Source of the DNA: Mucidula mucida
Taxonomy: Eukaryota; Basidiomycota; Agaricomycetes; Agaricales; Physalacriaceae
Assembly (NCBI GenBank): GCA_015501055.1
Contig: JADNYV010000188.1
Location: 1-64,000 of the forward strand
Direction of reading: 5' to 3'
Length of the DNA: 64,000 nucleotides
Every line of letters starts with the position of its first letter. Within the stretch, counting starts at the first letter, position 1. Made by a program: the position numbers and the translations under genes. Below are positions 2,002 through 25,687 of this stretch, piece after piece. The notes below the pieces were generated by a model. That model did not search any database. It was not told the DNA's origin and was given only the letters and a program-made list of their open reading frames with translations.

Positions 2002-2586
2002 AACCCAACTCTTCGGCCAACTTCTTCTTCTCCTCGTCGTTCATTTCGGTCCATAGACCCCGAATCGTCTGGGGTCGACCCTTCTTAGGACAGAACCTGC
2101 TGACATGGCCGTGTTCGCCACAGCTGAAGCAAAGTCCTCTTCGACGTGCGTTGTCGATATCCATCGGTCTGCCGGCTCCTCCATAGGTAACGCCGGTGGC
2201 ATCTCGTCGTGTGATTGGCGTCGGGGGTGGATTCGTAGGGTTGACTCTTGATATAGCTGCCTGCGGAGCTTGGGGCCGGGACTGCATGCCGGACCTCTTG
2301 CTCGCCGCCCGCCTTCTCCACAGCTGATCGATCTGAATGATCTGTGCCTTCCAATCCTTGTACTTCTTTGGCAACCCATCTCGGCTGCCATAGATCTGGT
2401 CAATGATCTTCTCGTTGACATTGGTCTCGCACGGATGTATGTGAACATCGATCGCCACCAGCTCTTGTACTTGGACTTATCCCCGTCATAGTCATAAGGC
2501 TTGTTGACAAGGGATCGACCTTTGGTTTCATCATTGGCGTGATGAGCGGGTGTGTGATGAGCAGCTTTGGGTGCTTCGTTGGACAT
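1982..2586 (-). pseudogene. Gypsy Gag remnant with CCHC zinc knuckle
   Basis: The frame 1982-2458 ends in a classic retroviral zinc knuckle, CFSCGEHGHVSRFCPK (C-x2-C-x4-H-x4-C), followed by a short acidic tail, and it overlaps the start of the pol frame. A Gag-like N-terminus (start at 2586, MSNEAPKAAHH, then YDYDGDKSKYKSWWR) lies in a different frame and joins the knuckle part after only about 45 codons. Normal fungal Gag proteins of this type are several hundred residues, so an internal deletion plus frameshift is inferred. Gag packages the element RNA; the knuckle binds nucleic acid. The overlap of the gag stop with pol fits a frameshift or reinitiation scheme. Confidence 0.8.
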
Positions 2587-3183
2587 GATGGATCGGGGTG
2601 ATGGGATCGGAGAGTGAAAGGGTGAAAGTGGGGATATGGGTGATGCGGATTTGGATGAAACGGGTGAGGGAATAGAGGTTTGGATGAATAGGGAGGGATC
2701 GCCTAGATCTGAAATAGAATCCAGGACTTGGTAGGGTGGGGAATGATGATGTGTATCGTAAGGTAAGTAAAGTAGGTAGGTATCGTAACTGTCTACACTA
2801 TTTTACCGACTACTGACTATGTATCTACGGAGCCCAAGAGCTCGTCACAAGTTCGCAATTGCCCAGCCGACGTCCCTCTGGTGTGAGGTAAGCCGAAGTT
2901 TTCCTGGGAACGGGGGTTGACCCGTAAACAGCGCCCACTGAAGTGCAACTGCCAAAAGTTCGTTCTCGTGAGAGCGGCTACTTCCAGCACCCGAGGCAGT
3001 TATCTCTAACTGTTAGCCGGCGCTACTGGGACTAATACACATGTATGCGGACGTGCGCTGGAATTAGGAATCCGTCGATCTGTAAACAGGAAAGGGAATG
3101 GGGAATGTGCGATGATCAAACAGTGAAGTGCTGATCGACAATCAGGGATGTGTGGTAGGTGGTAGAAAGTAGTTCCGATCTTC
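2587..3183 (-). other. Gypsy leader between LTR A and gag
   Basis: About 600 bp lie between the inner end of LTR A (3184) and the Gag start (2586). No open frame of note is present. I could not find a convincing tRNA-complementary primer-binding site directly next to the LTR; the first bases on the minus strand are GAAGATCGG. The stretch may be an untranslated leader, or it may include deleted gag sequence. Confidence 0.4.
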
Positions 3184-3713
3184 TGTTAGCGACTGACTAA
3201 GCCACGAGACTCAACCAGGTACCACAGCAAGAACTTAAGGAATAAAGTGTTTGTGTTTGTAAGACTAGGCTAGGCCAGGTGTATAAACGAGATCGGAACT
3301 AAAGTACAACAATGCTATGCTACTGCTTATACACTAGTAAGTCTGTGTTTGGAACTCCTTGTCCATACGCGTTTCCACTAGGGATGCTCCACGCCCTTGA
3401 CCCAGTGTGGTATGCTACTAGTCCGTGAAACCATTAAATATGAGTGGTAACTGCATGTAAGTAATAATACTGAAACGTCCATGTGTGCTACGAGTGTCGG
3501 CGGTGTGTATACAATAGGGAGTCCATGTGGTATCAGCATGTATGATGTCATCCATGTGTTGGACGTGTGTCCGACATGAGTACGGCTTCGGTAATGAAAA
3601 GGAGTATGATCGGTGACGAAACAGATGATGAAACAGTCCGTTGGTTGATAAGACAAGCCCCCCGATAAGATATGATAAGATGTGAGAATGTGAAAATATG
3701 GCGATTCATAACA
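3184..3713 (-). repeat. LTR A (530 bp, minus orientation)
   Basis: Begins TGTTAGCGAC and ends TTCATAACA on the plus strand, giving TGTTA...TAACA termini. It is the inverted copy of LTR B (3960-4489) and the same orientation as LTR C (6285-6821). Its orientation matches the minus-strand gag-pol to the left, so it is most simply the 5' LTR of that element. The five bases beyond its outer edge (ATGGG, 3714-3718) would be one target duplication; the partner lies outside the window. Confidence 0.85.
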
Positions 3714-3959
3714 ATGGGAACCGGCATGCAATCTCAAAAATGCCAATGAAGCCATCAGCGATTTCCACCAACAATATCCGAACAAGCCGAAGCCACCCGC
3801 GCTTGCTCGCATTGAAGTCCCCATGTCGCAATTTCCATCACATTTATTCCGACCCATGCCACCGCCTGATACCGAACCCCTTGACGTCATGCTACCCTCT
3901 GCAGCCCTCATGGAGCGACTCTGGCGCAGAATGGAACTTGCGCCTTAAGGAGGGGGTGA
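3714..3959 (+). mobile_element. 3' end of a second gypsy Pol plus polypurine tract
   Basis: In a plus-strand frame without an internal ATG start, the segment reads NEAISDFHQQYPNKPKPP and ends MERLWRRMELAP-stop, which looks like the C-terminus of a gypsy integrase/Pol. Immediately after the stop comes a purine run AAGGAGGGGGTGA (3947-3959), a polypurine tract, and then LTR B. This is the canonical 3' junction of an LTR retroelement. The rest of this element is missing to the left, where LTR A of the oppositely oriented element begins, so one element was cut by insertion or rearrangement. Confidence 0.75.
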
Positions 3960-4489
3960 TGTTATGAATCGCCATATTTTCACACTTTCACATCTTATCA
4001 TATCTTATCGGGGGCCTTGTCTTATCAACCAACGGACCGTTTCATCATCTGTTTCGTCACCAATCATACCCCTTTTCATTACCGAAGCCGTACTCATGTC
4101 GGACACACGTCCAACACATGGATGACATCATACATGCCGATACCTCATGGACTCCCTATTGTATACACACCGCCGACATTCGTAGTACACATGGTCGTTT
4201 CAGTATTATTACTTACATGCAGTTACCACTCGTATTTAATGGTTTCACGGACTAGTAGCATACAACACTGGGTCAAGGGCGTGGAGCATCCCTAGTGGAA
4301 ACATGTATGAACAAGGAGTCCCAAACACAGACTTACTAGTATATAAGCAGTAGTATAGTATCATTGTACTTTAGTTCCAATCTCGTTTATACACCTGGCC
4401 TAGCCTAGTCTTACGAACACGAACACTTTATTCCTTAAGTTCTTGCTGTGGTACCTGGTTGAGTCTCGTGGCTTAGTCAGTCGCTAACA
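3960..4489 (+). repeat. LTR B (530 bp, plus orientation)
   Basis: Begins TGTTATGAATCGCC and ends GTCGCTAACA. It is the reverse complement of LTR A with scattered mismatches. It sits directly behind a polypurine tract, so it is a 3' LTR of a plus-strand element. LTRs A and B face away from each other with only 246 bp between them, which gives this stretch hairpin-forming potential. Confidence 0.9.
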
Positions 4490-4554
4490 TTGTATGTCAC
4501 TCATTGCTCTTTGATATCATTTTCTGACTCTATGGCAGGAACACTGCACAGTTT

Positions 4555-7213
4555 ATGCTTGGATACTTCACTCCCAAGACCACGACGATGCCAATCACGA
4601 TGACACCAACCACTCCTCCGCCAGATCCATCTGCCCTCACTGTACCATCACCTGCACCTGATCGTGCATTCCCCAGTCCGTATATCGCCTCTCCCGAGCT
4701 CAGACACAAACGTGAAGCCGTAGCTACATCCGTCTCAGAAAGCAATGAGAACCTTGTTGATGACACTCTTGGATACACGTCAGATCTTGAGTCAGACACC
4801 AAAAGCAATGACGAATCGACACCGCTCAATGAGCCAGCCAGAAAACGCCAGAAACTCAACATCCCATATCGAGCTCAGTGCCAACAGAAGCACGACCACA
4901 TTGTCAAGGAACGCGAGCTGGCACTTGCTGCCATCGACAAACTGCTGCGGTCAGAGGTTGCATCGAAGGCACCCAACTCGCTTCAAGCAATATGTGCGCG
5001 CGCTGTCCAGAGCTGTCTCCGTCTTGTTGTGAAGACTGGCTCCAAGATAATGGAGGCATCCAAAGTGACGGCAATTGCTCATGGGTTTTTGCCCAAATAC
5101 GGTGGACGACTTGTTCGTGATTGGGTTCGGATGTGGACCAATAAGCAAGAGCTGCCTTCTTCAGCTTGTGGATCTCATGTCAAGTCGTTCTCGGTGCTTG
5201 ACGACCCGGTCGTTCTTGAAGGCACTTGGACGTATCTTCGCACCCATAAATGGGTGACGGATCCGCAAAAGTTCCAGCGGTTCATTAATAATGAACTGCT
5301 TCCGGACGCGCAAGTTTGTGGTGGACACGGTGGAGCCAGCAATGCGAAAGGGACTGCAACAATACCTTCAGCTCGAGCTCTTTCCCCGTATCTATTTCAA
5401 GGCAGCTGGTGGTGTCTCACTGAAGACCTCTGAACGTCTTATGAAGAAGTTGGGCTTCAGATATGTCAAGCATGCTAAAGCTGTCTATTTTGATGGCCAT
5501 GAGCGTCTGGACGTGGTCGATGATTGTCAAGATCGCTTCATTCCGGAGATCAATGCCTTACGCAACCAGATCATCGAGTATGTGGTTGGCAATGTTGACA
5601 ACAAGCAAATGAAGTCGCCACTGCAGGGTGAAAGGTACAACAACAACTGTGTCAAGCCTCAATATGTTCTTGTTGCCCACAACAAAATGACTTGTCAGGC
5701 TAACAATGACAAGGGCAAGAGTTGGGGCCCGGTGGATGAGCAGCCGTTGAAGAAGAAGGGTGTTGGTCGTGAGGTTCATCATAGCGAGATTATCTGTTCA
5801 AGTATGGGATGGATGAAGGATGCTGGGGAGAGTATGGATTATGGAAAGAATTATGATGGTTGGTGGACCGGTGAGATATTCTGCAAGCAGGTACGTGTTG
5901 AATTCAAGCTTTGATCCTTAACTGACATGTTTGAAGCTTCGAGAGAAGATCATTCCAATCTTTGAGCGGATTCACGGAGCCGGTCATATAATGATCTTAC
6001 TTGTCGACAACTCGCAAGGCCATTCCGCTTATGCTCAGGATGCATTGCTCACATCTCGCATGAATCTCAATCCCGGTGGGAAACAAGCTCATATGCGGAA
6101 TGGCTGGTTCATGAAGGACGGAGTCTGTGTCTCTCAGCCCATGGACTTCGAGCCAGATCATCCTGTTCATCCATCCGCACCCAAAGGAATGAAGGTGGTT
6201 CTTCAAGAGCACAGATTATGGCGGCCCATGCTTATAAAATGCAAGGATGGATGCCCCAGTAGAAGCATGACATGTTGTGCAAAGTGTTAGCAACTGACTA
6301 AGCCATGAGACTCAACCAGGTACCACAGCAAGAACTAAGGAAGAAAACGTTTGCGTTTGTAAGACTAGGCTAGGCCAGGTGTATAAACGAGATTGGAACT
6401 AAAGTACAATGATACTACACTACTGCTTATATACTAGTAAGTCTGTGTTTGAGACTCCTTGTCCATACGCGTTTCCACTAGGGATGCTCCACACCCTTGA
6501 CCCAGTGTTGTATGCTACTAGTCCGTGAAACCATTAAATACGAGTGGTGACTGCATGTAAGTAATAATACTGAAACGACCATGTGTACTACGAATGTCGG
6601 TGGTGTGTATACAATAGGGAGTCCATGAGGTATCGGCATGTATGATGTCATCTGTGTGTTGGGCGTGTGTCCAACATGAGTACGGCTTCGGTAATGAAAA
6701 GGAGTATGATTGGTGATGAAACAGATGATGAAACAGTCCGTTGGTTGATAAGACAAGGCCCCCGATAAGATATGATAAGATGTAAAAATGTGAAAATGTG
6801 AAAATATGGCAATTCATAACATAAAGCGGTGCTTGGATTCCCAGCCAGACTTTCAATTGCAGCGCTCTCTGGTTCACGAGATTTTGGCAGAAGCAGGGCA
6901 TATTTGTCTCATGCTGCCAAAATATCACTGCGAGCTTAACTTTATCGAGTTCTTCTGGGGCGCAACAAAACGATACTTGCGAGAGCACTGTGATTATACC
7001 TTTGACACATTGAAGGCTAATCTCCCCTTAGCGATGGCATTGGTATCATTGCAGACGATCCGTCAATGGGAACACCAGATGGTCAGATGGATCAATGCTT
7101 ACCGAGGAGGAATGGATGCTAAGGATGCTCAGACCGAGGTGAAGAAGTACAGCAGCCGTGTATACAAGTCCCACCGTCGCCCCTCGGAGCGCGTGGCTGC
7201 CCTCCTTGATTAA
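4555..7213 (+). pseudogene. DDE transposase gene, frameshifted and split by LTR C
   Basis: The gene can be followed in four blocks. 4555-5308 gives the N-terminus: Ser/Pro-rich, a basic ARKRQKL stretch, then helix-rich sequence. A frame change near 5308 leads to 5309-5890, which holds YFDGHERLDVVDD, a likely first catalytic Asp region. A 46-bp intron (5891-5936) precedes 5937-6284, which holds ILLVDNSQGHSAYAQDALL with the second Asp. LTR C interrupts at 6285. After it, 6827-7213 holds YHCELNFIEFFWGATKRYLREH with the catalytic Glu, and the frame ends in AALLD. The D...D...E layout and the ELNFIEFFWG box resemble Tc1/mariner DDE_3-type transposases common in agaricomycetes, but I cannot name the family. 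The single-base frameshift and the LTR make it non-functional. Confidence 0.8.
6285..6821 (-). repeat. LTR C, solo LTR inside the transposase gene
   Basis: Termini TGTTAGCAAC...TTCATAACA match LTR A. No gag or pol flanks it, so it is a solo LTR left by LTR-LTR recombination. The flanks are CAAAG (6280-6284) and TAAAG (6822-6826), a 5-bp target duplication with one change. Removing the LTR and one duplicate joins the transposase reading frame exactly (codons GCA AAG then CGG TGC), which confirms the insertion point. Confidence 0.9.
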
Positions 7214-7939
7214 TATCACGTGTATCATTGCGCCACACCTTCCTAATATAGTAAGCGGCCAAATAGGACCGTGATTCACATGGTCAACTTTTTATTTATT
7301 GCTCGGAGCAACTATCCCTCAAACAGATTGATAGTATACTTGAATAGCTTTCTTTTCACCAGAGGGATAAGGGATCAAGGTTGTCCCTGGAAAGCGGTAC
7401 TCATTGCACATCATTTGCGGTGACTAGGTGACCGGCACCATAAGTACTATGACAACGCCAAACTTGCGACTCCCTATATCAACATACGAACTGCCGAGCG
7501 TAACAGCTCCTCGCAGAACACCTTCCACCGGACGGGCGTATATCGTTTCGCGCGCGCCAGCTGCGCTTTCTTACTAAGCCTAGCTGATGGAGCGGATGTA
7601 TTATGTGAATCAGCACAATAATGCCGAGCGCGAAACAAGTCGTTGCATCCTGCGTCTCGACACTGTCACACAGAAAAGCATACCACCCCAACTCTGCGAG
7701 TTCGGAATTTTCTTCAGTACGAATCCCAATGCCGCTTGAACTTTGCCAGTTCCCGTAAGCTGGTCGTCACTAGGCTCGCCCTAGAAAAAGAGTTACAACA
7801 GGCTATGAATGACCACAAATGACACCAATGGTACGGGAGAGTGTGTATGTACAAGTGTTAAGAAGGGGTGTAAAAGCTACCAGTAGGATCATATATATAT
7901 TGAGATTCCGATTCTAATGATTATCTACTTGTTACCGAT
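7214..7939. other. Intergenic, nothing recognised
   Basis: Only short scattered frames are present. I saw no terminal inverted repeat for the preceding transposase and no RNA gene. Confidence 0.5.
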
Positions 7940-15599: not shown

Positions 15600-15712
15600 C
15601 GGGCACATAGAAAGTAGCGGCAACCCTCGCGGGACAGTGCGCCAGCGCATCCCGCGACAGCGCAAGCTGCGCTAGGGTTCCCGCGACGATGCGCTAGGGT
15701 TACGCGCTAGGA
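15600..15712. repeat. GCGC word array 1
   Basis: A degenerate array of short words such as GCGCTAGGGTT, TCCCGCGA and CAGCGCA in a stretch far richer in CpG than its surroundings. Same vocabulary as arrays 2 and 3. Confidence 0.7.
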
Positions 15713-15766: not shown

Positions 15767-16304
15767 AGTATTAAATTACAAATGTGCTCCATATTGTTAC
15801 TTGCGTATGGGCGTGACATGGAAAACATAATTGTAGTCTGATTGAGGATGCCACAACAGCGCTCGCCCCTAAGATCTTGCCAATATGGGAAGACGTGTCT
15901 GCAAACGATCAATCCATCCTTAATTGCTACCATCATGTACAGATCATGCTGACGATGGCTGATTTCGACACGACAAGTCTCCTCCGATAGCCCTCATGCT
16001 ACAAACCCTTCTCAGATGAACTTTGATGGCCTACCGAAGTTTCCAGTCAGAGCTTCACATCGGCCCCTGCCGTTTCGATGTACGTCGCGCCACTAGTCCC
16101 GACCTGATGATGCGACATTTACGCGTTATTTACAACAGGTGTACTCCCTCGGAACATTGTTACGACCCCCACGAGGTCCGTCTCTGATGTTGTCCGAATA
16201 GTACTTCAATTACGCATATGATCCTGCTCTGTCTTGGTAATTTTTTTGTTTTGTGTGTGTTCTGCTTGATCTCATGTTCTTCATTACAGTAACCTATCCC
16301 GCTA

Positions 16305-16515
16305 CACCCTTGCGCCTCGCGCAGTAGACCGCTAGCGCATCTCGCGCAGTCCCGCTAGCGCATTGCGCTTGTGCGCTTGTGCGCGAGGGTGCGCGAGACT
16401 CCCGCGAGCATTCCCGCAAGTGCGCTACGAACTCTCCCGCAAGTGCGCAAGTGCGCTAGGCTTGCGCTATGACTGCAGCGACCTGCGCTAGAAATCCCGC
16501 TAGCATTGCGCGAGC
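16305..16515. repeat. GCGC word array 2
   Basis: Repeated words CCCGCAAGTGCGC, GCGCTAG, CGCTAGCGCAT and TTGTGCGC in degenerate tandem. CpG dinucleotides are dense. The word CCCGCAAGTGCGC recurs in the array at 22.5 kb in the same orientation. Confidence 0.75.
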
Positions 16516-16987
16516 CGATCTTCACTTGGTCGGCATTGTCGAAGTATTCATAGTAAGTCGCGCCATATAAATGTTCAAAAGAGCGTCTTAATTATATCAA
16601 ATGTAGGTTGTTGTAAATGTAATCTATCTAGAAAAGAAATCCATTCACCTCTTTTGCCTTTTACTCCTCCTTGGCTCTGTTTTTGAGTTATCTGCCGAGG
16701 CGTCTTGGGTTTCTGCAGGACACTTATTTGGGTTGCTCTCGAACCTGAGACCAGGCTAGAAAAGGATGAGATTCAAGGCATGTCGGAAACTCTTTTTACT
16801 TACAGCTCGCTCCTTGTCTAATCCAACTCTTAGATTATCCTTCCAGCACTCCGGACCCTCGTCGTAGGGTACCCAGTCACTCTGAGGAAAACGAATATCA
16901 AGACCCCACTGTCCAAAAAAGGCAATTTAAGGGTCTGTGAAGCTGTTCGCTGTAACTTCAGACCATAATGGGTCACAGGCTGTGAAG

Positions 16988-19900
16988 TTACGGTCGAAAC
17001 GCTACAGTAATTCGCAGGATGGTGTCATGGTACGGCAAAAGGACTCGGTCAATTTTGCTGGTAAATGGTGTCCCTTTCGTATCAAGCAGAATGCTGTCGA
17101 ATTGACTTTCGCTCATAGAAGCCAGTTGCCATTTCCCAATCTATTACAAGGTCAGTGACCGCTTTTGCATTAATTTTGCTCTTACTGGTGTCTGACGCCG
17201 GCTCTTCTTGTCCTTCCAGTATTCATCGGCCATGTCTGACTCTGAAACTTTCACCGTTTCCCCAGTCTTGGGTGAGGAACCATCCGGATAAATGTTGCCT
17301 CGCCATGAGCGTACAAGCCACCAACGCTCGCTATGGACCTCTCCTACAGCATCAAGAATCCTTCCCGGATATTAGTAGTTGCCTTGTCGCACCAAGGCTG
17401 CCGTTCCGGGTCTATAAAACAGTGGTAAGTCAAATTAGTCAAGCGCGAACAGACAGATAGGCTGACATGAGACGTTCTGCTAGCGTCTTTTTACTAGCAC
17501 TATAAGAGTCAGTAACTTCGACGCCCTGAAAATAGACTTGAACATACAGGCGCGCTGATTCCTTCTTCTCGAAAGGGTTTCCTCCATGCAGTATCTCCTT
17601 CATTGATGCAATCGAACAGATATGGCAGATGAAGTCAATCTCGTCATCCATTGCCTTTCCATCAAGGCCGCGTTGACAGGCAACATGCGATGCAAGTCCA
17701 CACATGTCACACTCGACTGTGTTTTGAGGGAGTTCAACTCGATCTCCATCACCGTGTACACCACATCGGCATTCAAGACGGATCGGAGAAGAAGGCGGCG
17801 GCAAACTGGAGTCAATCAGAACCGTCTCCTCCTTGTCTTCCGACTCCGGTGTGGAGCAGGGTGTAAGAACAACTACGGGCGGTGTGGGGATGAGTTCGTA
17901 TTCTGAGAAGTTTTGCTTTTTTGTCCACCAAATATCCTTCCCATCGAGCTGACGGTACCCCTTGCGATTAAGATCAATGTCAGGGATCTCCGCCCACGTA
18001 TCTGAAGAGAAATCAAGTCCGAACAGCTCGTGTGCTCTGGCCTGCTGATGCTTGATAAAGGTAGCCTGTGCAGAGATTCCTCCTCGCAGCCGATAAACAA
18101 GGTCCGTCGTATAACAGGAACTGTAGCCAGAGGCAGTCGCATCCTTCTTGAACAGGTGGGTCTGAATGTCGGTCGAGTTCTCCTCCAGGACTAAACAGCC
18201 GCCAGATTTCATTCCATCGTAGCGATAGACATGCCAGCCATGATCAGAGTTAACCTTGCTGCGCATGATGTAGTGGTTCCCATTGACGAAGAATACTCGT
18301 GAGACGAGCTCGTACACAAGGCCATCTTTTACGTAGCTGGCAGGCATATTGGTGAGAGGTCTTAACACCTCGGGAGTGTCCCATCCTTCTTGTATGACGA
18401 CATCACCATAGGAGACAATGAGAAGGGTAGGAATACAGATGACGAGGTTGAGAAGGTTGGCGTTACCAAGGCAGGACGTCTCGCTGGCTGATGAACGCCA
18501 ACACGAGATAGCGTCTCCGTGGCAATCAATGGCTGTCCATTCCTGAAGCCAGCGCTCAAGACTGCCTTGAAGTCGCTGCTGATGTTGCGGCGGCGGGTGA
18601 TGGGCAACAAGAGTAGTAACCTCGTCAATTTTGATATGTTCAGGACGAGTCAATGAGCCTGAGGCACCGGTGCATCGACGAACGGTGAACTTGGTACTTT
18701 GGAAATATGATTGGCGCTGGAATTTGCATTGTCCCGTGAACGGTCAAGAATCTTTTCAATCCATGCCTGCCAGTAGGGATCAATCAATCAACTGAAAGTT
18801 CTGATTTGCAGAAGGAACTTACAAAGGATGGCTGATTCTTGTTTGCATTGCGAATAAACTTTGTTGGTGTATGGAATACGACCTTTTCAGCGTCCAGTGT
18901 CTTCAGAAATGCCGTCTTCTTCTGGAAAAGGACAGCATTCGAAGCCTTGTGGTTTGCAATGACGTTACGCGAATCAGATGTGCCATGGAGATCATACTGT
19001 GTGTGAATTGAGATGAGCAGCTCAAATAAATGTCGAAGAAGTGGAAACTCGGCTCTATCGGGGCGAGTCTGTGTAAGAGCAAACATGTCCCAGTTGTCGC
19101 GAATACCAAGATAGATAGCCATGAGCGAGGTGTCCAGCCAGCAAGACATGTCCTCCCAGGGAACTCCTGGCAGTGTCAGCGGGAGCACTGCCATTGGAGA
19201 AGGCGATCTAGGCTCAGTGATGGGCTTCACTGGCTTGTGTCTGTGCTGTGTAGATAAACGAGGTGGTGTATGAGGTGCAGGTGAAGTGTGGGTTGTTTTC
19301 TTGCGCTTCCAAGCCGGCAGTGAACCCAGTCCATTGCCATCACTGGCAATTGTGTCTGATTCGGCGGCTGTTTTCGTGGAAGATATGTTACCAGCATTGT
19401 CCTCTTCCGATTGCTTGCGTTTCCGCAACTTTGATGTGCCTGCCGATTCTTCCTGCCTTCCCTTCCTTGTCTTATCACCCTTGGCTGAAGATGACTTTGT
19501 CAATTCATCCAACGACTTCTCAAAATGTGCCTTAGACTTCTGTGTTGCACCTTTGTGGAGCTCCTTCACAGTGTCTGGAGCACGTCCATCATTCTTGATT
19601 TGTCGACGTGCTGGAGCATCAGGTGCTCGAGTGGGTTTAGTGCGGCCAATCTCAGCAGCAACAATCTTCCACGGTTCGGGCTCGCCATAGCTTGTCGGAC
19701 TCCCAACTGTAAGACACTGTCAGTACTTATTCAGATCTGTTACAAGTCCCAACTTGCCTAATTTGTGCTGGAAAAGTCTCTCAAAGTATTCGGCCATTGC
19801 CTTGAGGGCGTAAAATCCGTCAATCACGTCATGGTCCCGACCAGCGCCACAATACAACTTCCAGTGCATGGCCTCCTCTGCATTGCTAGAGTCGGGAATA

Positions 19901-22124
19901 GAGAGCCAGAGATCCATATCCATCACTATCTGGGATTTGAATATCATCGAGGCATGAGAAGGCCGACACCACCAAGCAAGCCAGGTATCGAGTTTTGGCC
20001 ATTTCCCGACCATTTCACGAACAACAATCATAAAGGCAGCGTGGTCCTTAACATGATGGAGGCGTTTGCACTGTTGTTCGAAAGTTCGCTGATCATCAAT
20101 CGGAATGACAGAGGAAATCTTCTTAATCCGGGTGCAGGCATTTTTAAAGTGCTGCTCACACCCTTTGAGCAAGCCTTCCGCTAACTTGGTAAGCTCTGCG
20201 TCACTTCGGTGATCCTTCCACCGCCGCTTCAAAAAGCGAACAAGTGCCAAGATGAAGCCTCGACGTTCAGCATTGCTAAAGTCCATAACCTGTAAGACAT
20301 TAAGCAGAGATGTACACCTATGTTTCACCACTTTGGCTTACCGTGGCGAAGTGTCGTAGCTCAAGAAGAAGATCCTTAGCCTTGCCATGGTTATGCATGC
20401 TCTTAAAAAGGGCGTAGAAGTGCCATTGAAAGTGCTCGGCACTAGCACCATTCGAATAACTGAAAATGCCGGGAACCCAGCAATGTAATCTTGGCGAGTA
20501 TGCCGACGACACAATGAGGATGTCATTTCGTTCGCGCCACCAACCATGTGCCCCATCAGAAACGAGACCATTGACAGCTTCAGTCTCGAGGAGTTCCTTC
20601 ACCAGCTGCTTTCGCATAAACTCGTGCTGGAGCGAGATGACAATCACTCCATTACCCGTGAACTTCTCCTGAATAACAAAATCAGGATTCTCCTGCTTGA
20701 ACTGCTTGTACTGATGAAGAAAGTTACTTCCGTTCTGTGCCCGTGAGCCTTTAAGCTTCTTCGTCTCGTAAGCCACACGGTCTGCATTAGCAAGCGGAGT
20801 AGCAATATTGGCGGTGGACTTTCCATGAGGACCAACTAGCGTAGGAAGACCCACGACGGCCTCTAGGGGCTTGAGCTTGGGATGATGGTTGACAAGTTCT
20901 CGAAACTGTGCTTCGGCATTGGCGGTCAAATGGATTTCATGCGTGGGCCGCGGATGACCGTGGAATCCACCGGTTGACGAGGACTGGGGGTTGTTACGGT
21001 AGTAGACACCGTTCTGCCAGTTATACAGAATTGATCTGACGTTCCCAGCGCAGGGGTGATAGTGTAGACGAGAACCACATTGGCATCGGCGAGCCAACTG
21101 CTTCTCACGAGACGACGTCTCCGTCACAGGGCGGAGAATGATCTGGCAGTCGTTGTTTATGCAAGTAATGTGTCCGAGACATTTGCGGTAGGGGCGCTTC
21201 CCGTCCTCCCACCGTGATGCATCCTTTACACGGTTTTTATCACCTCCACTGACTGTTGTCGCCCAGTGGGAGATGAGGTTCTTCGTAGCAGCGAACGTGG
21301 AGTGATCAAGGTCGAGGTCAAAGTCACCATCCGGCCATCCATCCCAATTCTCTGCGAGACCACCAGGTCGTGCATACATGAATGCCGAATTCTTTTCCTC
21401 GTTCGATGCAGCTGTCGAGGGGTCGGGTGCCTTGGTATCAGTTCGGAATTGCAACCGTACGGGACGATCAGATTCAACAGGTGAGCTGACCGCGGGAGAG
21501 GGCTGGGAAGGAGCTTGAGCTGTGTGTTCCGACTTAGAAGAGTCCCTGTGTTTGCCCGTGGCGAAAGGAAGGAATTTGCCTTTGATCTTGCGGTAAAGAA
21601 TGGGTGGGGATAGTGAACGGAGACTACTTGATTTTGAGCGGGAGGATTTGTTGTCGCTCTCGTTCACAGTTGAGGAGGTGGATTTGGAGGACTTGGAGGG
21701 ACTGGACGGCCTGGGGTGGGGACATTGAGGCTTAGGCTCCTTCGCTTTGTGACCATACTGGCTATCATTGAACGATGGATGTACATGATGAGAGGAATAT
21801 TCTGATGGCTCGCGGCGCGTTTCGCCTCCTTGAACGGACACGAGAACCTCGCGGTACTCGATTATATCACCTAGTCGGAGTAAGCATAGAAATCAGGAAC
21901 AAAGTCTCTGACGACGCACCAGCTACATTGCGGACTGGAACTAGCCGACTTTCAGGGGAAGATCGGACCGGCTGTCCAGCTGCATGGGAATGGGGAGGCC
22001 TTTCAGAGGGACCACGATTGTCGTTGCTTGCAGGGCGAACGAAATTTTCGATAAAGCGATCCTGTAGAAAGATTGAGCACAGCGTGATATTCTGAGCTAC
22101 ACATACAAATAGATTTCGAAGCAT
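16988..22124 (-). CDS. MULE-like transposase fused to a USP/USPL1-like peptidase and PHD finger
   Basis: One large gene read right to left. Proposed exons: 22124-22107, 22061-21920, 21870-20342, 20289-19758, 19706-18823, 18716-17495, 17343-17186, 17140-16988. All junction phases agree, giving about 1,545 residues. After a Ser/Pro-rich N-terminus comes a WRKY-GCM1-like zinc finger (KCLGHITCINNDCQ then RRCQCGSRLHYHPC). Next is a MULE-type DDE core: VSDGAHGWW, VMDFSNAERRGF, the C-x2-H motif GCEQHF, and NAEEAMHWKLY with Glu. Then a papain-fold peptidase with Cys box MSCWLDTSLMAIY and His box NGNHYIMR...GWHVYRYDGM. Then a PHD-type finger (CRCGVHGD...CDMCGLASHVAC...FICHIC) and a C-terminal RWWLVRSWRGNIY region. 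Two junctions are tentative: the first exons, and the 106-bp intron at 18822-18717; a shorter intron there would frameshift. One intron (19757-19707) is GC-AG. Confidence 0.75.
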
Positions 22125-23083
22125 GAGAAGGAGTGTCGGCGGTCATAAAGGAGTGACAGGACGTGAAGATTCGCAGTCGGGTGACCGTGTTCGTGGTCAA
22201 AAATTGAGACCAAGATGTACAGCCACCGGATATCCCTTCCGATTCCATATTGGGTACGCACACTTCCAGTGGACTGAACAATGAAATTCGAACAGATTTG
22301 GCATTTATAAGTCCAACACACATATCATGAAGGACATGTACATGGTGGAAAGATGTTAGGATCATCAACTCGGATCAGGATCTGATGTGTCACCTTTACC
22401 TCACACACTGATTAGATCGCCACTCGTCGCTCTATCTAAGGCGTTGAAGATCTACACAGACAGTCTCTCCACACAGACTATAGAAGATATGGACACTCCT
22501 TTGCGCTACTATGCGCGACCATTTATGCGCGATTGCGCCAGGGCCGGGGTAAACACTCCCGCTTCCCGCCAGTGCGCTACGCGCGGGCCCGCAAGTGCGC
22601 GACGGTTCCCGCTAAAATCTGTAGGCCCATCTTGGCATATACTTCTGAGCTATGTGCCTACTGGGAAAATCATTGACAATCGGAGTCGATCGATAAGGAT
22701 TCTTGTTTCATATATACCTCAGTCATTGCTCCCTTCTTGCGGTTGACTGAGGTACGCCGGTTCCGAATGTCCTGGTGGCGGCTAGTAAGTCGCCACCTTT
22801 TGAGGTCATATATGCTCTTGCCGCCACCGAAAGACAGGAAATTCGCAGAGTGAGTACTCTTCTCATCGATCCTCCCTGCATCGCGTACTAGACGTATACG
22901 CCGACATGCGTGGTAACTGGTTTCTTGACTACAAGGGTAGCGCCTCTCAATCCCTGCAGTATTCTGCTTGAGACGTAAGTCTCGTATCATTACTAAACTA
23001 TGAAAACTCTACAGCAGCCGTCGCACATACATGTCCTGCACGTCTATGACAAATAGTCTACAGGTGAATGAGCTTTAAATCTA
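22125..23083. other. Intergenic with GCGC array 3
   Basis: Presumed 5' region of the MULE-like gene, then the array at 22500-22620, then sequence without recognisable coding content up to the ABC gene. Confidence 0.45.
22500..22620. repeat. GCGC word array 3
   Basis: Words TGCGCGA, TTGCGCCAG, AGTGCGCTACGCGCG and CCCGCAAGTGCGCGA in about 120 bp, resembling arrays 1 and 2 on the other side of the MULE-like gene and in the same, not inverted, orientation. Confidence 0.7.
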
Positions 23084-25687
23084 CTAAGCCAGATGAGCAA
23101 TTTTATACATCTCCAAAGGAAAATGGCTTACCTCCACATCCTTAGCCACGCTCGTAAAGGCGCTCGCCTGAATATTGTACAACTTCGCATACTCCCCATC
23201 AAGCGCCATGAGCTCAGCATGAGTTCCAGCCTCGGCCACACTCCCGTCCTTCATGCACCTAAGATCGATCGTCCAATCAGCCATGTCAGCCAATGCAGGG
23301 ACACGGACGACTTACACAATAAGATCAGCATGCTTCGTAAGATGCCCAAACCTATGCGTCACAAATATCATCGTCTTCCCCTCCCGCACCTTGATAAGGT
23401 TATCAAACAGCTGCGCCTCTCCCTCCGGATCCAACGCAGAGCTCGGTTCATCTACAGCGACATACTTCACCCTCCCCGTGTTAAACCTCATAAATGTCCT
23501 TGACCTACTCAACGAATCAGCTCCGGCATATACAACGCACAAGATACTCACGCCACAACGCGCTGCTTCTCCCCACCCGACAGCTCAATCGTCTTCTCCA
23601 CCTTCTCCAGCTCCACGTTCAACGGATGCTCCTTATCATCCGGCATCTGATGCCCATACGCGTCGTTCAACGGGTCCAAGAATGTCTCATACTTCTGCTC
23701 CAGCTTCTCAATACAGTGAGTAGCGCCGCCCATCTCCGCGGCGGCCTTGATCCTGTCTGTGTCGTGGACCATGGCGACGTTCCCAAGGCCGATGTTCTCC
23801 CCGAGCGATAACGGGAATAGCCGGTGGTCTTGAGTCAACGTCGCAGTCGATTCGTGTAGGTCGCGCATGCGGTACTGAGTAATGGGAAGGCCGTCGACGA
23901 GGAGGGAGTCGGGTCCGGACGTAGGATCGTAGGTGCGGCTAAGTAGTTTTAAAATAGTTGACTTGCCACTACCGTTGGAACCGACGATGACCACAAGCTG
24001 ACCGGACTTGATGGTGAGATTGACGTTGCTCAGACTGGGGCTTGTGGTCTTGCTTCCAGGATATTTGAATGCCAGGTTCCTAATGCCGATGAGCGTTAGA
24101 ACGGGACGACGGCATACGCTGAAGCGCTTACCTCAACTCAAAGGACATGCCTTGCGATTTCTCCTCGTCCGTTCTGGGATATGCCACATCACCATCGGTC
24201 AGTACGTTCTTAATCTTCTCGGCCTCGTAGAGGTTACGCAATTCTTGTGACTGTCGACGGAAACTTTGAACGTTGGACACCATGTACCATAATGCCCATT
24301 CCAGCTGCGCGGAAGACTGTTGGAGGATCGCGACCTGGGAGATGGAGAACTTGGAAGGATTAAGGATTGCTTGAAGGGCGCAGTACGCCTAGGATGTCAT
24401 GAGTGCAGTGTCGTCCGCAATAATATGTAGCTTACGATTGGTAAATCACCCAACACGTTCGACGTAACATTACGTATCGGTGTTGACTCCCGCATGTACT
24501 GCGATCCTGGCCAGTCATCCGAGAGACTCCCAAGGAGCGTCGCAGCTTTCTCGTACTCTAGAAACGGAATTCATGAGTAGATACTCGCCGGACGTAGATA
24601 ACAATTTACCATTGAGAATGTACTGAATGAGGTCACCGCAAAGCACCTCCGCCCGATACCCAGGAGACGTCATACCATTAAGCGCCCTCATTCGTTTCTT
24701 GTTCGCGTTGTCAACGTAAACGATGTGGGCTGAGTGAAATTGATATTAGAAGATTCCAGGGTTTCCATGAGGCGCTGTATACGTACGCGTGTACCACAAG
24801 TCTTGCTTGCCGAGCACCAGGAAGAGCGGTTTGAGGATGCAAAGGAGGGCAAATAGAGGAGAGCCTGTAGCGCGAGACGCCTGAAAGATCAGTGCCAACT
24901 GACTGACAGTCCTCGTCGTGTCGACACAGAAGTCTACAACACCATCGAAAGCGTACCACGCATCGCGGGAGGAAACGCGTATCGAGCTCCTTGGCTCTAA
25001 AGTCTTCGTAAGAAATTGGAGCCGATGGATGCAATAAGAAGATACCTTGAGCGGTAGGTACATCGACTCGGAGATTGGCTGTGAATGATGACGTCAGATG
25101 AAATTGGCCTCAGTGGTCAAACTGCTTACCTTGCATGAGGTAAAGTTCGAAGTGTGTAGTAATGCGTGAGCGCAGGCGAGGAAGTATTTGCGCGCTGTAG
25201 TAGGCCCAGTCTGTACATGAAAGAAAGGAGGCAAATCCGTGAACGTACCAAGACCATCGCAGCGCAGCGGCAAACACAACACATATAAGTCGAACAGCGA
25301 CTGCGTTGAAGATCGCAGTTTTGTCGGGAGCGCCATCGACGAGGCCTATCTCAATCTAGAAAGTCAAGGTTATACAATGTCAGAAGGGGCGCAGATAACA
25401 CTTACGATTTTCAGAAGGCGACTGGAGAGATACAACAACAGAGCGCCTTCGATACCATTCCAGAACTGAGAGGCCACGTAGAGAACAGAAAGCAACGGTT
25501 CCAATGCGTATATCTCTGTAGCGAGGCGTCGAATGAGAGGAAGAGCAATGCTAACTTGCTTGAGGCTGTCCCGCAAATCCCAACCCCCGGCAGAGATCGG
25601 AAGGGTGAGCTTATAGATACCTAGCTCGACCGTCTTCAGCGTCACCTCTTCCTTCGGTTTCTTCTCAGATATTTCTTTGTGATCCAT
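23084..25687 (-). CDS. ABC half-transporter (membrane domain plus one ATPase domain)
   Basis: Start at 25687 (MDHKEISEKKPKEE), first exon to 25406, then 25355-25249, 25210-25130 and a series of short exons with introns near 50 bp. The N-terminal half holds hydrophobic stretches (for example ALEPLLSVLYVASQFW, LFALLCILKPLFLVLG) consistent with one membrane domain. The C-terminal half is a complete nucleotide-binding domain: Walker A VGSNGSGKST, Q-loop TLTQDHRLFP, signature LSGGEKQR, Walker B YVAVDEPSSALDPEGE and H-loop VTHRFGHL, split over exons 23548-23994, 23312-23551 and 23084-23293. The protein should dimerise to pump a substrate across a membrane using ATP; the substrate cannot be told. 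The exact C-terminus is uncertain because a GTAAGC donor sits in the last frame at about 23130. Confidence 0.85.

What the first reader, a model, noticed from the sequence alone, without database searches (positions are those of the whole stretch)
16988..22124. Apparently intact MULE-like transposase fused to a USPL1-like peptidase and a PHD finger
The sequence shows one gene with a GCM-type zinc finger, D/D/E residues with the MULE C-x2-H motif, a Cys box (SCWLDTS) and His box (GNHYIMR...GWHVYRYDGM) of a ubiquitin/SUMO-type peptidase, and a PHD finger. WRKY-GCM1 fingers in MULE transposases are established. The inference is that one polypeptide combines DNA cutting, deconjugation of a ubiquitin-like modifier and histone-tail reading, a plausible anti-silencing or chromatin-targeting design. 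The exon model stays in phase to the end, unlike every other transposon in the window.
Basis: partly seen in the sequence, partly recalled or inferred. Interest (0 to 1): 0.88.

Follow-up and report, generated by a model that had tools for sequence, protein, structure and literature searches.

The report
Broken mushroom transposase-deubiquitinase fusion gene
This stretch holds a broken copy of a fungal jumping gene whose unbroken relatives in mushrooms encode one long protein predicted to combine a DNA-cutting transposase, an enzyme that likely removes ubiquitin-type tags, and two domains that would read chromatin, so the family may carry its own tool for acting on the chromatin around it.

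Summary

The copy is not intact. A frameshift separates Cys box from His box, a TAA follows the PHD exon, and a MITE end cuts the gene at about 17009, removing roughly the last 200 residues. A second near-identical copy of the locus, most likely the other allele, shares frameshift and TAA and also carries an LTR retrotransposon. The genome's complete-looking relative is on contig C156, with inverted ends, a 9-bp target duplication and open frames.

'USPL1-like' is not shown; USP-type is the safe name. The transposase is MULE-like, but no Pfam MULE profile matches. Transposases fused to Ulp1 and PHD domains are published; this USP-type mushroom version I did not find in print. New variant of a known kind.

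The parts
22107..22124 (-). exon 1, ATG at 22124 (splice model)
   Evidence: in-phase splice model; no RNA
21920..22061 (-). exon 2, low-complexity N-terminus
20342..21870 (-). exon 3: GCM-type zinc finger and first D (VSDGAH) of the transposase
   Evidence: (GCM 19.9 bits, below the cut-off of 25)
19758..20289 (-). exon 4: second D (DFSNAER), C-x2-H (KGCEQHF), E (SNAEEAMHW)
18823..19706 (-). exon 5: linker and Cys box MSCWLDTS of the peptidase
18713..18766 (-). frameshift region: AWIEKIL frame and His-box frame overlap here
   Evidence: the same in the C110 copy
17455..18716 (-). exon 6 remainder: His box GNHYIMR, YRYDGM, PHD core; if not spliced at 17455 it ends at TGA 17441-17439
   Evidence: PHD 13.6 bits, below the cut-off of 24
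17186..17411 (-). exon 7 by homology: Tudor-like barrel segment, with in-frame TAA at 17374-17372
   Evidence: fold from the C156 counterpart
17009..17140 (-). exon 8 by homology, start of the C-terminal domain, cut off at the MITE junction
16908..17009 (+). terminal piece of a MITE of about 250 bp with TA ends
17393..17397 (.). site (CCTTG in gene sense) where the C110 copy carries a 6.5-kb LTR retrotransposon
15601..15631 (+). tentative left end of the element (weak inverted match to 22628)
   Evidence: no target duplication seen
22598..22628 (-). tentative right end of the element, GC-rich array inside
   Evidence: no target duplication seen

Best explanation
The gene at 17.0-22.1 kb (minus strand) is a decayed copy of a MULE-like DNA transposon family of mushroom-forming fungi whose unbroken members encode a single protein predicted to join a GCM zinc finger, a DDE transposase, a USP-type cysteine peptidase, a PHD finger and a Tudor-like barrel, and which would move by cut-and-paste while the peptidase likely strips ubiquitin or SUMO from chromatin at the element. 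Shown by sequence: domain order, conserved catalytic residues, spread of the family, lesions of this copy, and inverted ends with a 9-bp target duplication around the relative on C156. Shown by structure prediction only: USP fold and Tudor-like fold. Inferred and untested: the zinc finger binds the element ends, the DDE domain cuts and joins them, the PHD-Tudor pair holds the protein on nucleosomes, and the peptidase in cis removes ubiquitin or SUMO marks that would silence the element or destabilise the transposase. The window copy most likely no longer makes the full protein.
Confidence: 0.7

Rival explanations
1. The window gene still works in a shortened form: the 106-nt intron 18822-18717 keeps the frame and the protein ends at TGA 17441-17439 after the PHD finger, perhaps as a gene kept by the host.
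For: Such a model is in phase to 17439 (model B), the exon of the His box is open for 434 codons, and the locus is single in this genome apart from the C110 copy and the diverged C156 relative.
Against: It deletes an invariant Trp and needs an intron twice the length of the others; TAA and MITE cut follow; the C110 copy has an LTR element just after the stop; Asn before the catalytic Cys (19 of 22 boxes) is Met here, and the PHD Trp (11 of 17 cores) is Ala.
Confidence: 0.12
2. The peptidase acts in cis on the transposase or on repair factors, for example sparing the transposase from degradation or helping to close the donor break, rather than on chromatin marks.
For: This is the role suggested for Ulp1 and OTU domains of Ginger1 (PMC2836005, Discussion read); protection from degradation is discussed for transposon-borne VTD deubiquitinases (PMC9741609, passages).
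Against: The family's PHD and Tudor-like domains point to chromatin, though these could serve target choice alone.
Confidence: 0.35
3. The transposase belongs to a separate superfamily, near but outside MULEs.
For: No PF10551 match in any of 13 members, in three distant relatives or at the window gene in the own-genome search; profile comparison negative.
Against: 9-bp target duplication and inverted ends lie in the MULE range seen in PMC6446971 (passages); KDZ elements show 7-8 bp (PMC12730594, passages); GCM/WRKY fingers are known companions of MULE transposases (recalled). The hhalign profiles were shallow, so that negative is weak.
Confidence: 0.25

Closest known systems
Ginger1 transposons and Mutator elements of animals and plants with Ulp1, in some cases PHD, domains (PMC2836005)
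   Same: DDE transposase fused to a cysteine peptidase for ubiquitin-like modifiers; Ginger1-9_HM has Ulp1 and PHD, and a figure aligns Ulp1 and PHD domains of Ginger1 and Mutator transposases
   Different: Ulp1 or OTU fold there, USP fold here; here also a GCM finger, a Tudor-like barrel and a conserved C-terminal domain; fungal hosts. Their sequences were not compared here
Trichomonas protein with Transposase_11 and Peptidase C19 (mentioned in PMC2836005)
   Same: transposase joined to a USP-family peptidase
   Different: different transposase family; one protist protein is named; no chromatin readers are mentioned
Helitron-borne VTD deubiquitinases (PMC9741609, abstract and passages)
   Same: transposon-encoded deubiquitinase; activity of family members tested by those authors
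   Different: rolling-circle element and another peptidase family with Asp-x-His active site
Rehavkus elements (PMC6446971, passages)
   Different: arthropod and annelid hosts, minisatellite, no peptidase mentioned in those passages
Mushroom transposons carrying TET/JBP dioxygenases (PMC12730594, abstract and passages)
   Same: fungal DNA transposons carrying an enzyme likely to counter silencing
   Different: DNA demethylation genes in KDZ, Plavaka and others; the words MULE, peptidase, PHD, ubiquitin and protease do not occur in its main text
Human USPL1 (PMC8983731, passages)
   Same: USP fold with Cys-His-Asp triad and very low identity to other USPs; similar CWLD Cys box (recalled)
   Different: SUMO-specific host enzyme without transposase; no specific relation to it was shown here

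Membership tests
MULE (Mutator-like) superfamily | D, D, C-x2-H, E in this order | tested here: met
   C-x2-H also occurs in other superfamilies (recalled)
MULE (Mutator-like) superfamily | terminal inverted repeats and 8-11 bp target duplication | tested here: met
   met for the C156 relative (9 bp); for the window copy ends are tentative and no duplication was found
MULE (Mutator-like) superfamily | match to the Pfam MULE profile PF10551 | tested here: not met
   0 of 13 members; window gene not among 15 own-genome matches. Hence called MULE-like, not filed as a MULE
MULE (Mutator-like) superfamily | GCM/WRKY-type zinc finger (frequent companion, recalled) | tested here: met
   C156 34.4 bits against cut-off 25; P0003 33.0; window 19.9, below cut-off; 1odh E 7.3e-11 for the family profile
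Ubiquitin-specific protease (C19) fold | USP fold spanning Cys and His boxes | tested here: met
Ubiquitin-specific protease (C19) fold | catalytic Cys, His, Asp | tested here: met
   Cys681 of P0053 falls where USP30 Cys77, USP35 Cys450 and USP2 Cys276 lie (row titles and ranges); Cys box 22, His box 26, Asp motif 22 of 32 models by pattern; all three motifs in the window, split by the frameshift
Ubiquitin-specific protease (C19) fold | cleaves ubiquitin conjugates | not testable with these tools
   needs enzyme assay
USPL1 (C98) subtype | profile or fold match to USPL1 above other USPs | tested here: inconclusive
   no Pfam peptidase match; USPL1 not among the 50 rows shown
PHD finger | C4HC3 zinc core, Pfam PF00628 | tested here: met
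   P0042 27.5 bits against cut-off 24; 9 of 13 members match at E <= 1; window 13.6 bits, below cut-off
PHD finger | Trp next to the H-x2-C, part of the methyl-lysine cage (recalled) | tested here: not met
   Trp in 11 of 17 cores found among 26 proteins, and in C156; Ala in the window
Tudor / royal-family barrel | five-strand barrel | tested here: inconclusive
KDZ transposons | KDZ transposase profile; 7-8 bp target duplication | tested here: not met
   no KDZ family in the Pfam scan of 13 members; C156 has 9 bp against 7-8 bp in PMC12730594
Ginger1 | Gypsy-integrase-like transposase with GPY/F motif and Ulp1 or OTU domain | not tested
   no Ginger1 sequence was compared; the USP fold here differs from its published description

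The most novel reading that the evidence does not exclude
Mushroom-forming fungi host a widespread transposon family whose transposase carries its own chromatin-guided eraser: PHD and Tudor-like readers dock it on nucleosomes and a USP-type peptidase removes ubiquitin or SUMO there, so that one protein both de-silences and mobilises the element, the protein-modification counterpart of the TET/JBP enzymes of other mushroom transposons.
Probability: 0.3. Interest if true: 0.75.

Novelty: new variant of a known kind. Interest (0 to 1): 0.5.

Why it matters
Transposons with Ulp1, OTU or VTD domains have long hinted that mobile elements tamper with ubiquitin and SUMO. Here a USP-type peptidase sits in cis with a transposase and two predicted chromatin readers in many mushroom species, so whether a transposon's peptidase acts on chromatin, on repair factors or on the transposase itself could be tested with single-residue mutants of one protein. 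For this window the message is humbler: the copy is a relic.

Tried and rejected
Rejected: 'intact copy'. Rejected: C110 as a newly transposed copy; the same flanking sequence continues on the far side of an LTR insertion, so it is the same locus, most likely the other allele. Rejected: the 104-bp repeat at 16908-17011 as the element's own terminal repeat; it is the end of a MITE of about 250 bp. Three contigs with short transposase matches (C938, C773, C791) are near-identical, flanks included (99.4-99.7%), so one locus or duplicated assembly, with a strongly shortened derivative; a 9-bp repeat beside it was judged chance because only one side shows a likely end.

Led nowhere or weak: PF10551 and hhalign tests of MULE membership; the hhalign alignments are shallow. 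NCBIfam: 0 families for 13 members. The fold search hardly tested the DDE part: its rows cover 670-1013. The shuffle test of the window's ends (1 of 1000 as good) was made after the match had been seen and shuffled single bases of one side only. The first PHD pattern had wrong spacing and found nothing; repeated correctly. The patterns miss true sites in shortened models and over-call a few (for example the E of P0061, the W of P0045 and P0066). In one search the window is misaligned around F-x-W-L because model B lacks it. One search covered 23 proteins but rows of nine were printed. One search counts one TGA in the C156 match; it ends the open stretch at 5978, where I place an intron, without RNA.

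Literature, ten full-text searches of the held library: USPL1 + MULE + transposon, none; five-term Mutator/basidiomycete/peptidase/PHD/transposase, none; USPL1 + transposase, one unrelated adipocyte paper; the six-term MULE/fungi/cysteine protease search, one review, passages seen, nothing on this; a six-term fungal DUB search, none; the others gave the papers cited. 'Not found in print' means these searches only; most subscription papers and Repbase lie outside them. (23 papers with WRKY-GCM1 and transposase) was seen as a listing only.
Full report
What is there. The window lies on contig C147 of a genome of 59.9 Mb. Its nearest named protein relatives are mushrooms, the closest Hymenopellis radicata at 73% identity over a partial protein, so an agaricomycete host is inferred. 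The gene is on the minus strand. A splice model starts at ATG 22124 and runs through exons 22124-22107, 22061-21920, 21870-20342, 20289-19758 and 19706-18823 without a stop; the four introns between them are 45, 49, 52 and 51 nt, three GT-AG and one GC-AG.

Where it breaks. After the next intron (18822-18767, 56 nt) the exon opens with AWIEKIL. Relatives have F-x-W-L here, and that Trp (W774 of P0042) is an invariant column of the 13-sequence alignment A2. In this frame the window meets a stop after 38 codons; His box, Asp and PHD finger lie in another frame. tblastn with relatives puts the switch between 18766 and about 18713. An in-phase model needs the acceptor at 18717, which gives a 106-nt intron and deletes the Trp (model B). 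The following exon by homology (17411-17186) has an in-frame TAA at 17374-17372 where most relatives have an aromatic residue. The last exon stops at about 17009, where a terminal piece of a MITE of about 250 bp begins. Homology to relatives ends there: for P0042 at residue 1318 of 1532, for P0040 at 1439 of 1655.

Contig C110 holds the same locus: 99.93% identical over 2,767 bases on one side and 99.94% over 1,797 on the other. It shares the sequence 18680-18850 and the TAA, and carries at 17393-17397 a 6.5-kb LTR retrotransposon with 529-bp LTRs that are 100% identical. I take it as the other allele.

The family. Three searches returned 39, 26 and 7 proteins. Long models occur in Mycena, Panaeolus, Gloeophyllum, Coniophora, Agaricus, Agrocybe, Crucibulum, Collybia, Flammula and others. 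On the 32 long models P0040-P0071 simple patterns find D1 in 26, D2 in 23, C-x2-H in 28, E in 25, Cys box in 22, F-x-W in 25, His box in 26, Asp motif in 22, PHD core in 21, barrel motif in 17, C-terminal QWG motif in 15 and GCM spacing in 17. Four models (P0043, P0044, P0051, P0070) match all twelve, in the same order. The denominator includes shortened models and three distant proteins (P0063-P0065); the patterns err both ways.

The mobile element. The one other long relative found in this genome is on C156: 50% identical in the transposase exon, 39% in the peptidase-PHD exon (the tool calls its counts lower bounds). It has inverted arms of 34 nt, 82% complementary (L017 1143-1176 and 7887-7920), and the exact 9-mer GTGGAGTTG directly outside both ends (1133-1141 and 7922-7930). 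Its five coding stretches are open. So the family is a DNA transposon. For the window copy I propose ends at 15601 and 22628, which share a 17-bp core with two mismatches, but no target duplication was seen; this is tentative.

What to call it. Finger, D/D/E with C-x2-H, and the 9-bp duplication fit MULEs (passages of PMC6446971) and do not fit KDZ elements, 7-8 bp (PMC12730594, abstract and passages). Yet PF10551 matches none of 13 members. I say MULE-like. Likewise 'USP-type' is supported and 'USPL1-like' is not.

Mechanism. Inferred: the finger binds element ends, the DDE domain cuts and joins, PHD and barrel hold the protein on nucleosomes, and the peptidase removes ubiquitin or SUMO there. 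That it instead protects the transposase or aids repair is about as likely; a repair role was the suggestion for Ginger1 (PMC2836005, Discussion read). In the window copy the PHD position held by Trp in 11 of 17 cores is Ala and the Asn before the Cys (19 of 22 boxes) is Met, in keeping with relaxed constraint.

Known or new. Transposases with Ulp1, and with Ulp1 plus PHD, are published for Ginger1 and Mutator, and a C19-transposase protein is mentioned for Trichomonas; PHD fingers occur in Rehavkus; Helitrons carry VTD deubiquitinases (passages). A 2019 survey of MULE diversity has neither 'protease' nor 'peptidase' in its main text. The mushroom version with USP-type peptidase, PHD and Tudor-like barrel did not turn up in ten full-text searches. 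It is a new variant of a known kind.

Noticed in passing
window 16908-17011; L029-L036: A MITE family of about 250 bp with TA...TA ends (TACTGTAG / CTACAGTA); 44 matches to its end returned from 250 candidates of which 40 were scored, often as inverted neighbours.
   Followed up: partly
L018 2768 to C110 9292; window 2430-3713, 3957-4489, 6285-6797: A young LTR retrotransposon (529-bp LTRs, 100% identical, 5-bp duplication) in the C110 copy; relatives of its LTR lie in the first 7 kb of the window.
   Followed up: partly
L017 1158-1227 and 7503-7920; window 16300-16510 and 22500-22620: GC-rich arrays of short repeats just inside the element ends, with different motifs in the two elements; candidates for transposase binding sites.
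   Followed up: partly
L019 about 4090-4910 and L020 4124-4967 (C938, C773, C791): A strongly shortened relative keeping N-terminal, mid-transposase and C-terminal pieces, probably one locus in several contigs.
   Followed up: partly
P0046, P0048, P0052, P0059 (Mycena): A Mycena subgroup in which the barrel region is diverged and the C-terminal QWGLD motif is absent in the alignment.
   Followed up: no
window 23084-24132, minus strand: Open frames with Walker A (GSNGSGKST) and ABC signature (LSGGEKQR) words read like an ABC transporter next to the element (no search made).
   Followed up: no
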